NCBI GenBank assembly: GCA_023954415.1
Contig: JAMLIB010000005.1
Span: 186,001 to 250,000 of the forward strand
DNA length: 64,000 nt
Direction: 5' to 3'
Source: Trueperaceae bacterium
Lineage (GTDB): Bacteria; Deinococcota; Deinococci; Deinococcales; Trueperaceae
How positions within the stretch are numbered: position 1 is the first letter of the stretch; every line of letters starts with the position of its first letter. Shown here one piece after another: positions 11,604 to 19,290 of the stretch. Position numbers and translations under genes: made by a program. The notes under the pieces are model-generated. The model was given only the letters and a program-made list of their open reading frames with translations. It was not told the origin of the DNA and did not search any database.

Positions 11604-12041
11604 ATGGGCAGCACGAACTACTTCGAGACGTTCATAGGTGTCGCCGACGACTGCCCGGCCGAGGTCGGCACGGTGCCGCCCGAGCGTGGGGAGCAGCCGT
11701 CGGTCGCGCTGCGCACTTACCGCATGATCGCGAGCGCGCCGTACCAGCACACTTCCGACGACGTCATCTTCGGGGTGACCGCCGACAGGCAGGGCATACC
11801 GGAAGCCGAACGGCCCGCGGCAAGGGCCGCCTTCTTCGCCAAACCGCAGGCGTGCTTGCGGGCCTCGGACCTCGGCAGGCGCTACGGCTGGGGCATCCAT
11901 TCGGACGAGTTGGGCCGCGTCGCCCTCTACGGCGTCGAGACCGACGAGTACCGCAGGTTGGCTGCCGGCGAGTCGCTGGCCGGCGAGGCGGGCGCGGTGA
12001 CCGTCATCACCAGGGCGATGCGGTCGAAGCGCGCCCGCTAG
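11604..12041 (+). CDS. DUF6157 family protein
   Basis: A 145-residue soluble protein resembling DUF6157, whose function is unknown. Family-like features: the N-terminal TNYFETFIGVADDCPAEVG, PYQHTSDDVIFGVTADRQG in the middle, and KPQACLRASDLGRRYGWGIH. The last 20 residues are basic (TRAMRSKRAR). It is transcribed alone, divergent from ilvD and convergent with leuB. No functional link to the branched-chain genes is evident beyond position. Confidence 0.75.
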   Translation: MGSTNYFETFIGVADDCPAEVGTVPPERGEQPSVALRTYRMIASAPYQHTSDDVIFGVTADRQGIPEAERPAARAAFFAKPQACLRASDLGRRYGWGIHSDELGRVALYGVETDEYRRLAAGESLAGEAGAVTVITRAMRSKRAR

Positions 12042-13729: not shown

Positions 13730-15157
13730 TCAGGCAACGGCCTTCCCGGTGCCGAAGACCTCGCGGGCGTCGGACACCATGCCCGTGACGGCTGCGGCGG
13801 CGACCATCACTGGGCTCATGAGCACGGTGCGCCCGGTCGGAGACCCCTGGCGACCCTTGAAGTTGCGGTTGGAGGACGAGGCGCATAGCTGATCGCCCAC
13901 GAGCTTGTCCGGGTTCATGGCGAGGCACATGCTGCAGCCGGCGTCGCGCCACTCGAAACCGGCCTCCTTGAGCACGGTGTCGATCCCGAGCTTCTCGCAC
14001 TCGAGCTTCACGAGGTGCGAGCCGGGCACCGCGATGGCCTGGACGTTGGGGTGCACCTTGCGCCCCCGCATGACCCTGGCGACCTCGACGAAGTCCGTGA
14101 TGCGGGCGTTCGTGCACGAGCCGAAGAACGCCACGTCGACCTTCGTCCCCTTGATGGGCGCGCCGCCCACGAGCTTCATGTGGCTGAGCGCCTCGGCCAC
14201 GCCCGCCTTGTCGTGCTCCGGGGCGCCCTCCACCGTCGGCACGAGCTCGTCGATGGCGATGGCCTGGCCCGGGTTGATGCCCCAGGTCACGGTCGGCGGC
14301 ACGTCGGCCGCGTCGATCACCACCACGTCGTCGTAGTGGCAGCCCGGGTCGGAGGCCAGCGCCCGCCAGCTCTCCACGGCGGCCGCCCACGCCGCGCCCT
14401 TGGGCGCGTACGGCCGGCCCTCGAGGTAGGCGAACGTGGTCGCGTCCGGGTTGACGTAGCCGCAGCGCGCGCCCCCCTCGATGGACATGTTGCATACCGT
14501 CATGCGCTCTTCCATCGTCATGGCGTCGAACGTCGTGCCGGCGTACTCGTAGGCGTAGCCGATGCCGCCCTTCACGCCTAAGGTGCGGATGATGTGGAGG
14601 ATGACGTCCTTGGCGTACACGCCGGGCCGCAGCGCGCCGTTCACCTCGATGCGCCGCAGCTTCGGCTTGCTCATGGCCATCGTCTGCGTGGCGAGCACGT
14701 CGCGCACCTGCGACGTGCCGATGCCGAACGCGATGGCGCCGAACGCGCCGTGCGTGCTCGTATGCGAGTCGCCGCAGGCGATCGTCGAGCCGGGCTGGGT
14801 GATCCCCTGCTCGGGGCCGACCATGTGGACGATGCCCTGCTTGCCGCCGCCGACGTCGAAGAACGTGATGCCGTGCGCGGCGGTGTTCTTGCGCAGTTCG
14901 GCGATCATGGCCGCGGCCATGGGGTCGGCGAACGGCTCGACGCGCGTGTGGGTCGGCACGATGTGGTCGACCGTCGCGAACGTGCGCTCGGGCAGTAGGA
15001 CCTCGAGGCCGAGGTCGGCGAGCATCCCGAACGCCTGCGGGCTCGTGACCTCGTGGATCAGGTGCGTATCTATGAAGAGTTGGTCCTGGCCGTTGCGCAG
15101 GCGCCCGACCGTGTGGGACTCCCAGACCTTGTCGAAGAGGCTGCTAGGTTCGCTCAT
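13730..15157 (-). CDS. leuC: 3-isopropylmalate dehydratase large subunit
   Basis: The 4Fe-4S aconitase-type subunit of isopropylmalate isomerase. About 475 residues. Cluster cysteines appear in [13 protein letters not shown] and [32 protein letters not shown] and [12 protein letters not shown] are also diagnostic. The start is the ATG at 15157, with GAAGGA 9 nt upstream; a GTG ten codons earlier is less likely. It is the first structural gene behind a promoter, leader ORF and hairpin at 15195-15416, so expression is probably attenuated. Confidence 0.96.
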
Positions 15158-15194
15158 GCTTCCCGTTCCTTCTATGGACCCGCTCACGTGAGAA

Positions 15195-15223
15195 GACCCC
15201 CGGCCGCGGGTGGGCCGGGGGTC
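15195..15223 (-). terminator. attenuator-like hairpin upstream of leuC
   Basis: A perfect 11-bp stem (GACCCCCGGCC with GGCCGGGGGTC) and a 7-nt loop, followed in the transcript by TTCTC. It sits between the leader ORF stop and leuC, where an attenuator terminator would be. A second, weaker hairpin (AAGGGC/GCCCTT) lies at 15245-15264, between this stem and the leader stop. The U-tract is poor, so Rho or translational control is possible. Confidence 0.6.
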
Positions 15224-15278
15224 GTGATGCGCTCGTGCTCTTACAAGGGCTCGGTCCTGCCCTTAGGTAGCCGCGGCT

Positions 15279-15380
15279 TCACGCCTCCCGTTCGGATAGC
15301 CACACGACCGCTCGCCACTGGACGAAGGCGAGGCGCCGTCTGGTGCGTGGGACCCTGCCGCCGGTCGTGCTGGCCGTCAT
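15279..15380 (-). CDS. putative leu operon leader peptide (33 aa)
   Basis: A 33-codon ORF starting 7 nt after a canonical promoter, so it would be the first thing translated on a leaderless leuCDB transcript. It begins MTASTTGGRVPR and ends FVQWRAVVWLSEREA. The C-terminal half holds Val, Trp and Leu codons, including one CTA, which is rare in this C- and G-ending genome. It is followed by two hairpins before leuC. The role as a ribosome-stalling sensor of branched-chain aminoacyl-tRNA is inference; it has only two Leu codons, fewer than classical leuL peptides. Confidence 0.55.
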   Translation of the reverse strand: MTASTTGGRVPRTRRRLAFVQWRAVVWLSEREA

Positions 15381-15387
15381 GCGGCGA

Positions 15388-15416
15388 AGTATAAGAGCGC
15401 CGAACGCGGGCGTCAA
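15388..15416 (-). promoter_or_regulatory. leuCDB promoter (TTGACG - 17 bp - TATACT)
   Basis: On the minus strand, -35 TTGACG (15411-15416), a 17-bp spacer and -10 TATACT (15388-15393). The -10 ends 7 nt before the ATG of the leader ORF. The -35 overlaps the pilT stop codon. Confidence 0.8.
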
Positions 15417-16603
15417 CGAGCGGAACGCCCGAGGGGCGGCGTGCCGCGCCGGGGCGTGGTCGGGGCCGGCGTTGGCCTGGCCTGCTCGGGGGCCGTCGCC
15501 CCTTGCGCCTGGCCGCCGGTGGAGACGAGGCGCTCGAACTCCTTGGCGTCCACGGCGCGCGAGGAGCCGGTCTCGAAGGAGATGGCCTTGCGCAAGTGGA
15601 GCTCGGCGAGGGAGGCGTCCATCGTGATCATGCCGATGGCGCCGCCCATCTGGATCTGGGCGGGGATCTGGTGCGTCTTGCCCTCGCGGATGAGGTTGCG
15701 CACGCCCGGCGTGGCGATGAGCAGCTCGTAAGCGAGCACGCGGCCCTCCCCGCCGGCGCGCGGGATGAGCTGCTGGGTGAGGATGGCCTGCAGGTTGTTG
15801 GCGAGCTGCACGCGCACCTGCGCCTGCTGCGCGTCCGGGAAGACGTCGATGATGCGGTCGATGGCCTCGGCGGCCGTGTTGGTGTGCAGCGTGCCGAGCA
15901 CGAGGTGGCCGGTCTCGGCGGCCGTCACGGCGGCGCCGATCGTCTCGAAGTCGCGCATCTCGCCGACCAGGATGACGTCGGGGGCCTGCCTGAGCACGCT
16001 GCGCAGCGCCGCCTGGAAGTTCGCGGTGTCCTCGCCGACCTCGCGTTGGTTGACGATCGACGTCTTGTGCCGGTGGAAGAACTCGATGGGGTCCTCGATG
16101 GTGACGATGTGCTTCGAGTACTCGTCGTTGACCAGGTCGAGCATGGTGGCCAGGGTCGTCGACTTGCCCGAGCCGGTCGGGCCCGTGACGAGCACGAGGC
16201 CACGCGGCAGCCGCGCGATGTCGGCCGCCTCCTGCGGCAATCCGAGGTCGGCGAACGTGAGGACCTCTTCCGAGATCGTGCGCATGACGCCGCCGACGGA
16301 GCCGCGCTGCATGAACACGTTGACGCGGAAGCGCCCGTGGCCCGTCAGGCTGAACGAGAAGTCGAGGTCCTTGCGCTCCTCGAAGTTGCGCTGCTTCTTC
16401 TCGTCCATCAGCGCGTACATGAGGCGCCGCGTCATCGTCCCGTTGAGGACCTCGTACTCGGTCGGCCGCCACTCCCCATCGAGACGCAGCATGGGCGGGA
16501 GGCCGACCGTGAGGAGGAGGTCGGAAGCCCGCCGCTCGATGGCGAGCTTCAGTAGGTCGACGATGTCTGCCTGGATCTGGGTCGAACGGATCTGGTCTGC
16601 CAT
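15413..16603 (-). CDS. pilT: type IV pilus retraction ATPase PilT
   Basis: A cytosolic hexameric ATPase that powers pilus retraction (twitching, DNA uptake). Seen: N-terminal ASDLLLTVGLPPMLRLDGEW, Walker A GPTGSGKSTTLATML, Asp box IVTIEDPIEFFH, Walker B VILVGEMRD, His box TLHTNTAAEAIDRIIDVFP, and the retraction-specific GVRNLIREGKTHQI. 396 residues; the last 35 are Pro/Thr/Gln-rich and look disordered. ATG at 16603 follows AGAGGACC. It lies 23 bp after pilB on the same strand. Confidence 0.95.
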   Translation of the reverse strand: MADQIRSTQIQADIVDLLKLAIERRASDLLLTVGLPPMLRLDGEWRPTEYEVLNGTMTRRLMYALMDEKKQRNFEERKDLDFSFSLTGHGRFRVNVFMQRGSVGGVMRTISEEVLTFADLGLPQEAADIARLPRGLVLVTGPTGSGKSTTLATMLDLVNDEYSKHIVTIEDPIEFFHRHKTSIVNQREVGEDTANFQAALRSVLRQAPDVILVGEMRDFETIGAAVTAAETGHLVLGTLHTNTAAEAIDRIIDVFPDAQQAQVRVQLANNLQAILTQQLIPRAGGEGRVLAYELLIATPGVRNLIREGKTHQIPAQIQMGGAIGMITMDASLAELHLRKAISFETGSSRAVDAKEFERLVSTGGQAQGATAPEQARPTPAPTTPRRGTPPLGRSAR

Positions 16604-16626
16604 GCCTGGTCCTCTCGCGTCGCGCG

Positions 16627-19290
16627 CTACTCGGCCGTGCGCGCGAGCACCTCTTCCAGGGTCGTGATGCCCTGGAAGGCCTTGTTGATGCCGTCGTCGC
16701 GCAGCGTCTTCATGCCGCGCTTGACCGCCAGGTCGCGCAGCTCGATGGAGGACGCCTCCTGGACGATGGCCTTCTCGATCTCCTCGTCGACCACGAGCAG
16801 CTCGTGGATGGCGTAGCGACCGTTGTAGCCGCTGCCGCCGCACTTCTCGCAGCCGACGCCGCGGTAGAGCGACTTGCCCGCCATCTCCTTCTCGGAGATG
16901 CCGAGGCGCCGCAGCACGTCGGGGTCGGGGCTCGAGGCGACCTTGCACTCGCGGCACACGCGCCGGACGAGGCGCTGGGCGAGGACGCCGATGAGGGACG
17001 CCGAGACGTTGAACGGCTCGATGCCCATCTCCTGCAGGCGCGTGATGGCGCCGGCCGAGTCGTTCGTGTGCAAGGTGGCGATCAGGAGGTGGCCGGTCAG
17101 GGCGGCTTCCATCGAGATCTTCGCGGTCTCGTGGTCGCGGATCTCACCGACCATGATGATGTCGGGGTCCTGCCGGAGGAACGAGCGGAGGGCGCGCGCG
17201 AAGTCGAGGCCCGCCTTGGCGTTCACCTGCGTCTGGTTGATGCCGGGGATCTCGTACTCGACCGGGTCCTCGATGGTCGTGACGTTGACCTCGGGCGTCG
17301 CGAGGCGCTTGAGGATGGAGAAGGTGGTGAACGACTTGCCCGAGCCGGTCGGGCCCGTGATCAGGAACATGCCGTACGGCTTCTGGATCACGTCCGTGAA
17401 GCGCTGGTAGTTGTAGTCGGCGAAGCCGAGCTGCTCGATCTCGGGGATGTCGGACGCCTTGCGCAGGATGCGCATCACCGACTTCTCGCCGTACACGGTC
17501 GGGAGCGTGGAGAGGCGGAGGTCGACCTCCAGGTTGCGGTCCTTGAAGCGCACGCGGCCGTCCTGGGGCAGGCGCCGCTCGGCGATGTTGAGACCGCCCA
17601 TGATCTTGATGCGCGAGGCGAGCGCGGGGGCCGTCACCTTCGGCATGGTCATGTACTCGCGCAAGGTGCCGTCCTTGCGGACGCGCACGATGACCTTGTC
17701 GGGTCGCGGCTCGATGTGGATGTCGGAGATGTCGTTGAGGACGGACTCGCGGATGATGTTGTTGACGACCTTGACGAGCGCGTTGTCGTCGATGGCGCTC
17801 GTGTCGTCCTCTTCGGAGCTGGAGGAGACCCCGACCTCCTCGACCACCGCCTTGGCGAGCTCCTCCATGTCTGCGCCCTCGCGGTAGAAGCGGTTGAGCA
17901 TCCGCGTGAGCGACTCTTCCGTCGCCACCGCCGGGCGGATCTCGCGGCCCGTTATCAGGTGGATGTCGTCGAGCGCGAAGACGTGGCGCGGGTCCTTCAT
18001 CGCGACGACGAGGACGTCGCCCTCCAGGCGCACGGGCATGGCGGCGTAGCGCCGCGCCGTCGGCTCGGGCACCAGGCTGACCGCGTACGGGTCGATGCGC
18101 GTGTTGTCCTCGATGAACTCGAAGCCGAGCTGCATGGCGAGGCTGCGCGCCAGCATGTCCGGGCTGATCTTGCCGGACTGCACGAGCGTGTCCTCGAGCC
18201 GGCCGCCGCCGGAGCGCTGCTTGTTTAGCGCCTCCTCGACGTCCGATTGCGTGACGTAGCCGAGGTCGACGAGGATCTCGCCCAGGGGCTTGATCCGGCC
18301 GAGCTTCGCCTGCTCCTCCAACGCTCTACGGAGCTGCTCGCGCTTCAGGCGCTTGCTCTGCAGCAGCGTCTCGCCGAGCCGGCCCTGGTCCTGGGCGTAC
18401 ATCTCGTCGATGCGCGCCGTGACGGCGGGCCCCGTGGCGGCCACGAAGGTGACGTCGCCCGAGACGATCGACTCGATGTCCGCCATGCGCCGAGGGTCGG
18501 AGATGGCGACGACGAGTGTGCTGCCTTCGAACTTGTACGGCACGGCGGAGAACTGGACGGCGTCGAGGCGCAGGAGCTTGGTGGCCAGGCGCTCGTCCGG
18601 CGGCTCGCCCGCGAGGTCCGCCACGAACGGGATGCCGTGCTGCTCGGCCAACAGGGCGGTGAGGTGCTCCTCGCTCAGGTGCCCGCGGCTCACCAGGATG
18701 CGCCCAAGGAGACCGCCGGTCCGCTGCTGCTCCTCGATGGCCTCGGCTAGTTGCGCGGCGGTCAGGAAGCCGCCGTTGACGGCGAGGTTGCCGAGCCGCA
18801 TGGCGGGGTCGACCTCGATGTCCACCGGCGGCTCGAGCCCCAGCTCCGGGTAGTAGGTCGCTAGCGCCCAGAGCATCTCCTTCTGCAGCGCGAGGTAGGG
18901 CTCGACCAGGCAGCTGGACGCGTCCTCGACCTCCTCGATCGCCAAGGCGTCGAGCGGATCGACGAACGCGACCCGCAGACGGTCCTGGTCGACGGCGAAC
19001 GGGATGGCGCGCAGGTCGTTGGCGAGGTCGGCGGGGACCTTGGCCAGCGCGTCGGCCATGACGTCGACACGCGGCAGGTGCACGAGGGGGATGCCGATCG
19101 ACTCCTCGACGGCGCGCGCTATGCGCTGCTCCGACAAGACCCCGAGGTTGACCAGGATGTCGGCCAACCGGCCACCCACTTCGCCGTGCCGGCTGATGGC
19201 TTGTTGCAACGCGTCGTCGGTGACGTAACCGCGCTCGAGGAGCACGGCCCCGAGCCTCTTGTCACCGATCGAGAGTACTGCCACGGTCAT
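16627..19290 (-). CDS. pilB: type IV pilus assembly ATPase PilB/PilF with three N-terminal repeats
   Basis: The extension motor that polymerises pilin, also needed for natural transformation in relatives. About 887 residues, far longer than E. coli-type PilB because the N-terminal MshEN-like domain occurs three times (openings RLGAVLLERGYVTDDAL, RLGNLAVNGGFLTAAQL, PLGEILVDLGYVTQSDV), as in Thermus PilF. The ATPase domain shows GPTGSGKSFTTFSIL, ATIEDP-like TTIEDPVEYEIPG, and IIMVGEIRDHETA. Zinc cysteines lie in VCRECK and GCEKCGGSGYNGR. I chose ATG 19290, which overlaps the preceding TGA (ATGA), over ATG 19308. Confidence 0.94.
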   Translation of the reverse strand: MTVAVLSIGDKRLGAVLLERGYVTDDALQQAISRHGEVGGRLADILVNLGVLSEQRIARAVEESIGIPLVHLPRVDVMADALAKVPADLANDLRAIPFAVDQDRLRVAFVDPLDALAIEEVEDASSCLVEPYLALQKEMLWALATYYPELGLEPPVDIEVDPAMRLGNLAVNGGFLTAAQLAEAIEEQQRTGGLLGRILVSRGHLSEEHLTALLAEQHGIPFVADLAGEPPDERLATKLLRLDAVQFSAVPYKFEGSTLVVAISDPRRMADIESIVSGDVTFVAATGPAVTARIDEMYAQDQGRLGETLLQSKRLKREQLRRALEEQAKLGRIKPLGEILVDLGYVTQSDVEEALNKQRSGGGRLEDTLVQSGKISPDMLARSLAMQLGFEFIEDNTRIDPYAVSLVPEPTARRYAAMPVRLEGDVLVVAMKDPRHVFALDDIHLITGREIRPAVATEESLTRMLNRFYREGADMEELAKAVVEEVGVSSSSEEDDTSAIDDNALVKVVNNIIRESVLNDISDIHIEPRPDKVIVRVRKDGTLREYMTMPKVTAPALASRIKIMGGLNIAERRLPQDGRVRFKDRNLEVDLRLSTLPTVYGEKSVMRILRKASDIPEIEQLGFADYNYQRFTDVIQKPYGMFLITGPTGSGKSFTTFSILKRLATPEVNVTTIEDPVEYEIPGINQTQVNAKAGLDFARALRSFLRQDPDIIMVGEIRDHETAKISMEAALTGHLLIATLHTNDSAGAITRLQEMGIEPFNVSASLIGVLAQRLVRRVCRECKVASSPDPDVLRRLGISEKEMAGKSLYRGVGCEKCGGSGYNGRYAIHELLVVDEEIEKAIVQEASSIELRDLAVKRGMKTLRDDGINKAFQGITTLEEVLARTAE

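What the first reader, a model, noticed from the sequence alone, without database searches (positions are those of the whole stretch)
15195..15416. Leaderless leader ORF plus hairpins before leuCDB: candidate new leu attenuator
Seen: TTGACG-17 bp-TATACT, then 7 nt to an ATG opening a 33-codon ORF that ends FVQWRAVVWLSEREA, then a weak hairpin and a perfect 11-bp stem before leuC. Known: leucine operons are often attenuated through leader peptides. Unusual: the leader itself appears leaderless, the peptide has few Leu codons (one is the rare CTA) but a Val/Trp/Leu-rich end, and the terminator lacks a good U-tract. It may act by a different stalling or Rho-dependent rule.
Basis: partly seen in the sequence, partly recalled or inferred. 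Interest (0 to 1): 0.75.

Follow-up and report, generated by a model that had tools for sequence, protein, structure and literature searches.

The report
Leaderless leucine attenuator before leuCDB
Before its leucine-synthesis genes this bacterium carries a tiny gene, read from the very first base of the messenger, that probably senses leucine through one rare leucine codon; the switch recurs in related families, and in its own family the tiny peptide itself is unexpectedly conserved, which classical attenuation does not require.

Summary
The same arrangement precedes leuC in 45 genomes with a readable leader (Trueperaceae and other families of the order), and every leader holds at least one CTA codon. 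CTA is 43% of leader Leu codons against 2-3% in genes and is matched by the genome's single tRNA-Leu(UAG). RNA just after the CTA, through the stop codon, pairs with the 5' arm of a terminator hairpin in most leaders. The best reading is ribosome-mediated leucine attenuation on a leaderless transcript, with CUA as control codon; the Val/Trp codons are incidental. The poor U-tract is confined to GC-rich lineages. Unexpectedly, 26 Trueperaceae leaders share RRRL exactly 10 residues before the CTA, conserved as amino acids while third codon positions are randomised. Leaders without it mostly carry two or more CTAs. A nascent-peptide contribution is possible but untested. Leaderless attenuators are known in Actinobacteria and CUA control in Salmonella leu; this is a new variant. 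No expression data exist.

The parts
15388..15416 (-). Promoter TTGACG-17-TATACT; the -35 box overlaps the stop codon of the upstream pilT-like gene
   Evidence: same promoter at same place in relatives
15279..15380 (-). Leaderless leader ORF, 33 codons, MTASTTGGRVPRTRRRLAFVQWRAVVWLSEREA*
   Evidence: homologous leaders
15330..15341 (-). RRRL codons (AGA CGG CGC CTC), conserved as amino acids in 26 Trueperaceae leaders, 10 residues before the CTA Leu
15297..15299 (-). CTA codon 28, the proposed control codon
   Evidence: invariant at this position in 26/26 motif leaders; at least one CTA in 45/45 leaders
15279..15290 (-). Antiterminator 5' arm CGGGAGGCGUGA (includes the stop codon)
15244..15265 (-).
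   Evidence: seen in closest relative G005, not conserved further
15215..15227 (-). Antiterminator 3' arm UCACGACCCCCGG, overlapping the terminator 5' arm
15195..15223 (-). Terminator-like hairpin, 11 bp, loop CACCCGC, weak tail TTCTC
   Evidence: hairpin at the same place in most relatives, many with strong U-tracts
13730..15157 (-). leuC, 3-isopropylmalate dehydratase large subunit; leuD (13737-13114) and leuB (13117-12059) overlap in series

Best explanation
It is a ribosome-mediated transcription attenuator that senses charged tRNA-Leu(UAG). RNA polymerase starts at or one base before the AUG, so a ribosome loads on the 5' end without a Shine-Dalgarno site. With enough leucine, the ribosome reads the single CUA and reaches the stop codon, covers the antiterminator 5' arm, the hairpin before leuC forms and transcription ends. 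When Leu-tRNA(UAG) is poorly charged, the ribosome stalls with CUA in the A site; its front edge lies just at or inside the antiterminator 5' arm, this arm pairs with UCACGACCCCCGG, and leuCDB is transcribed. Shown by sequence: promoter and leaderless spacing, conserved CTA, complementary segments, terminator, amino-acid-level conservation of RRRL. Inferred: the start site, stalling, termination and the leucine response. An assisting role of the RRRL nascent chain in the exit tunnel is a further inference.
For: 45 of 45 readable leaders contain CTA; 54/126 leader Leu codons against 23/1127 in leuC of the same genomes, product of per-leader chances about 1e-44 over 38 genomes, not corrected for relatedness. 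CTA is read by the only tRNA-Leu(UAG); CTC and CTG have their own GAG and CAG tRNAs. ATG lies 7 nt after the -10 in most. Terminator-like hairpin in nearly all. Antiterminator pairing exceeds shuffles (mean z -1.12, p 2.8e-7) and a segment upstream of the CTA (Wilcoxon 4e-10). Two relatives (G007, G008) show a decayed leader: ATG to ACG and CTA to CTG in G007. The same genomes carry similar leaderless leaders with CTA codons before ilvB and leuS. In Salmonella leu, replacing CUA by CUG lowers sensitivity (Carter et al. as cited in PMC1183508).
Against: No RNA or ribosome data. In the window's genus the terminator is more stable than the antiterminator and the latter overlaps it by only 3-5 bp when 12 nt from the CTA are masked, so antitermination must win kinetically; overall only 31/45 reach 5 bp in that state. 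The U-tract in this genus is weak. In Streptomyces coelicolor ilvB/leuA leaders, codon mutations did not behave as classical attenuation (reported in PMC1262725). A single control codon should give low sensitivity (PMC1183508).
Confidence: 0.83

Rival explanations
1. Nascent-peptide-assisted attenuation: the RRRL-x2-I-x2-R part of the chain, about 8-14 residues from the peptidyl-transferase centre when CUA is in the A site, contacts the exit-tunnel constriction and slows or times the ribosome, so that one rare codon is enough. It refines rather than replaces the main explanation.
For: RRRL columns: pairwise differences at codon positions 1/2/3 = 0.198/0.038/0.635, against 0.648/0.626/0.633 just after the CTA (same with one leader per genus, 10 genera). 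The 10-codon spacer shows no indel in 26 leaders, while residues before the motif vary from 3 to 13 and after the CTA from 5 to 17. RRRL pairing with the antiterminator arm is no better than synonymous shuffles (z -0.02, p 0.92). Motif leaders have one CTA in 23/26; motif-less leaders have two or more in 14/19 (Fisher 3e-5; family only p 0.005, not corrected for relatedness), and the tree suggests loss of the motif in several lineages.
Against: No stalling assay; RRRL resembles no arrest motif known to me; the codon-number link rests on few independent events and fails in G014.
Confidence: 0.35
2. The leader peptide is a functional small protein acting in trans (as reported for the Sinorhizobium trp leader peptide peTrpL, PMC7298713), which explains conservation of its core.
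For: Amino-acid-level conservation of a cationic core; precedent in the abstract listed.
Against: Does not explain the invariant CTA codon, the fixed distance to it, or the divergent ends; the motif is lost in several lineages that keep the attenuator.
Confidence: 0.07
3. Rho-dependent or SD-sequestering control with the ORF acting through coupling only, not by an intrinsic terminator.
For: Weak U-tract in the window's genus (TTCTC); Actinobacterial LEU elements involve the SD box of leuA (PMC1262725).
Against: Hairpins with good U-tracts lie at the same place in many relatives, and the stem ends 37 nt before the leuC start, clear of its SD region.
Confidence: 0.08
4. Chance ORF between promoter and leuC without regulatory role.
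For: The fold of the single sequence is not unusual.
Against: Conservation of start position, CTA, peptide core and pairing over the order.
Confidence: 0.02

Closest known systems
Salmonella/E. coli leu operon attenuator (leuL)
   Same: Leu biosynthesis operon, leader peptide, rare CUA control codons, terminator/antiterminator
   Different: There (partly from memory) the leader has a Shine-Dalgarno site, several adjacent Leu codons and a four-segment RNA; here a leaderless ORF, in this family usually one CUA, a simpler two-state RNA and a conserved peptide core
Leaderless leader peptides of Streptomyces lividans (LeuL1 before leuA, LeuL2 before leuS, IlvL, TrpL; PMC8079986) and leu/ilv leaders of other Actinobacteria
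   Same: Leaderless transcript, short ORF, amino acid genes, also leuS and ilvB
   Different: Runs of Leu codons (LLLL, LLL), other phylum, leuA rather than leuC, no RRRL motif at fixed spacing; the LEU element of leuA is a pseudoknot near the SD (PMC1262725)
Polycysteine leaderless short ORFs of mycobacteria (Canestrari 2020, cited in PMC9031893)
   Same: Leaderless uORF acting as an amino-acid-responsive attenuator
   Different: Cysteine, runs of Cys codons, effect described on translation of downstream genes
Arrest-peptide leaders such as TnaC or erm leaders (from memory)
   Same: Conserved residues at a set distance from a stall codon
   Different: Those respond to a free ligand; here the invariant feature is a rare codon, and no ligand is implied

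Membership tests
Ribosome-mediated (classical) leucine attenuator | Short leader ORF upstream of leu genes with Leu control codons | tested here: met
   45/45 leaders with CTA
Ribosome-mediated (classical) leucine attenuator | Intrinsic terminator between leader and first gene | tested here: met
   Hairpin in nearly all, U-tract strong in many, weak in the window's genus
Ribosome-mediated (classical) leucine attenuator | Competing antiterminator whose 5' arm lies after the control codon and is covered by a ribosome at the stop codon | tested here: met
   Group-wide test; single-genome energetics weak for the window
Ribosome-mediated (classical) leucine attenuator | Protector 1:2 hairpin | tested here: inconclusive
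   Codons -14..-1 against the antiterminator arm: z -0.30, p 0.09 relative to synonymous shuffles
Ribosome-mediated (classical) leucine attenuator | Expression responds to leucine through the control codon | not testable with these tools
   Needs reporter or RNA-seq
Leaderless mRNA | Transcription start at or within about one base of the start codon | tested here: inconclusive
   -10 to ATG distance of 7 nt, conserved; no 5'-end data
Nascent arrest peptide | Residues conserved at fixed distance from the stall codon | tested here: met
   RRRL, 10 residues, 26 leaders
Nascent arrest peptide | Peptide-sequence-dependent ribosome stalling | not testable with these tools
   Needs toeprinting
T-box or other Rfam leader | Match to a family model | tested here: not met
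   No Rfam match up to E 5 in 14000-17000
Actinobacterial LEU element | Run of Leu codons pairing with the leuA SD, pseudoknot, upstream of leuA | tested here: not met
   Single CTA, upstream of leuC, terminator hairpin present; definition from PMC1262725

The most novel reading that the evidence does not exclude
An amino-acid attenuator in which a conserved nascent-chain motif (RRRL at 10 residues) makes a single rare codon into a sufficient sensor, so that peptide motif and number of control codons can replace each other in evolution.
Probability: 0.33. Interest if true: 0.82.

Novelty: new variant of a known kind. Interest (0 to 1): 0.6.

Why it matters
It extends leaderless leader-peptide attenuation to the Deinococcota in a strongly conserved form. 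It also shows a leader peptide under clear amino-acid selection away from its control codon, a case where codon sensing and nascent-chain effects could be separated by simple recoding. The lineages that lost the motif and carry extra CTA codons are a natural comparison. I found no description of it in the open papers searched; subscription papers, in particular older Thermus leu work and Lopatovskaya 2010, could not be read.

Tried and rejected
Rfam/T-box search: no match. Thermodynamic z-score of the single leader: unremarkable. RRRL as a protector (1:2) RNA arm: looked plausible by eye in the window (CGCCUC/GAGGCG), but synonymous shuffles do as well across the family. Val or Trp as the sensed residue: not conserved. 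A codon-model dN/dS run with IQ-TREE printed no omega, so position-wise differences were used instead. Paper searches on Thermus or Deinococcus leu leaders gave nothing relevant.

Full report
Observation. The -35 box TTGACG overlaps the stop codon of the upstream pilT-like gene (T2SSE domain). The start ATG (15380) lies 7 nt after TATACT. The ORF ends at 15279. The weak hairpin and the 11-bp stem follow, and leuC starts at 15157. The downstream genes are leuC, leuD and leuB by NCBIfam.

Setting. The window's genome belongs with Trueperaceae: a relative at 97% LeuC identity, G005, sits on a contig of the same length as one labelled uncultured Trueperaceae bacterium. LeuC was used to collect upstream regions from the whole family (39 genomes) and from other families of the order.

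Conserved architecture. A readable leader was found in 45 genomes: promoter, ATG (once GTG) usually 7 nt after the -10, an ORF of 12-42 codons, a hairpin, then leuC. In Thermus-like genomes the peptide is MRRGFLLDLGRAGPA, in others MTYARTLTLIPPPRG. Peptides differ widely between families, but every one has at least one CTA codon. CTA makes up 43% of leader leucine codons and 2-3% of those in genes. The window genome has one tRNA gene each for Leu anticodons TAG, CAG, GAG, CAA and TAA among the long tRNA genes found, so CTA is the codon of its own isoacceptor. Two sister genomes without a working leader (G007, G008) show recognisable decay; in G007 both the start codon and the CTA are changed.

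RNA switch. A hairpin, in most cases followed by T residues, lies between the leader and leuC in nearly all genomes; the GC-rich lineages, including the window's, have poor T-tracts. The stretch from about 8 nt after the last CTA through the stop codon pairs with the terminator's 5' arm and the bases before it. This exceeds dinucleotide shuffles (p 2.8e-7) and an upstream control segment (p 4e-10) over 45 leaders. In the window it is CGGGAGGCGUGA with UCACGACCCCCGG, both conserved in the genus, with a CGGGC variant of the first arm. A ribosome at the stop codon would cover this arm; a ribosome with CUA in the A site would leave most of it free. Caveat: with 12 nt masked, the window's antiterminator takes only 3 bp of the terminator arm and cannot outcompete the finished terminator at equilibrium. 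Timing must decide, as is assumed for other attenuators.

Peptide-level conservation. In 26 leaders from 10 Trueperaceae genera the sequence RRRL (one RKRL, one RPRL) occurs exactly 10 residues before the CTA leucine. First, second and third codon positions of RRRL differ between leaders at 0.20, 0.04 and 0.64, whereas the three codons after CTA differ at 0.65, 0.63 and 0.63. The constraint is therefore on amino acids. Pairing of the RRRL codons with the antiterminator arm is no better than with synonymous codons. The spacer has no indels although both ends of the ORF vary in length. When CUA is in the A site, RRRL would sit about 11-14 residues up the chain, near the tunnel constriction (general knowledge of ribosome structure). 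Leaders with the motif have one CTA in 23 of 26 cases; those without it have two or more in 14 of 19. The LeuC tree places the motif across Trueperaceae with apparent losses in G009, G017/G025 and G012/G014. G012 keeps a degenerate form by eye, and G014 is an exception to the codon-number trend. The counts are not corrected for shared ancestry.

Interpretation. The best-supported mechanism is classical leucine attenuation by a rare CUA codon on a leaderless transcript. The theory and experiments summarised in PMC1183508 explain the choice of CUA and predict that few control codons give low sensitivity. The RRRL motif may be how this family manages with one codon. That step is inference.

Known relatives. 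Leaderless leader peptides before leuA, leuS, ilvB, trpE and others are described in Streptomyces lividans (PMC8079986), and leaderless cysteine attenuators in mycobacteria (cited in PMC9031893). Leaderless mRNAs make up about 60% of genes in Deinococcus deserti (PMC9031893). The present case is a new variant: other phylum, leuC, CTA control, peptide motif.

Wider family. The same strict promoter pattern in this and related genomes finds further leaderless leaders with rare codons for the matching amino acid: before leuS (CTA), ilvB (CTA two or three times), non-discriminating aspS (AAT, GAT), DAHP synthase (TAT) and pheS (TTT) (genes named). TAT and AAT do not occur at all in the window genes counted. 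A general use of rare-codon leaderless attenuators in Trueperaceae is likely, but was only partly followed up.

Noticed in passing
L140 (G000 C11:122151), L168 (G001): Leaderless leader before leuS: MADARQGMTFRCCLALFSRARSG with two CTA codons and a GC hairpin; the related leader in G001 has one CTA. Leucyl-tRNA synthetase seems attenuated in the same way.
   Followed up: partly
L153 (G021), L156 (G016), L172 (G009): Leaderless leaders before ilvB (acetolactate synthase) with two or three CTA codons and a hairpin with T-tract; no RRRL motif.
   Followed up: partly
L132 (G000), L154 (G001), L171 (G017): Leaderless leaders before aspartate--tRNA(Asn) ligase with Asn/Asp codons partly in rare AAT/GAT form, then a terminator hairpin.
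   Followed up: partly
L139 (G000 C8:147832): Leaderless ORF before a DAHP synthase with YDYSYAYP, several Tyr codons in TAT form, which is absent from the window genes counted: candidate tyrosine attenuator.
   Followed up: partly
L159 (G010 C12:61916): Leaderless 11-codon ORF MASETASPFIG with one TTT codon before pheS, then a hairpin and long T-tract.
   Followed up: partly
L136 (G000 C5:102885): Leaderless 36-codon ORF with GTA CTA CTA before a V-ATPase G subunit gene; no obvious reason for leucine control.
   Followed up: no
window 11604-12041 (+): DUF6157 gene on the opposite strand between leuB and ilvD, so ilvD is probably not in the same transcript as leuCDB.
   Followed up: partly
G007, G008 leuC upstream (L019, L029): Sister lineages with a decayed leader (ATG to ACG, CTA to CTG in G007; only a start and first codons left in G008), natural losses of the attenuator.
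   Followed up: partly
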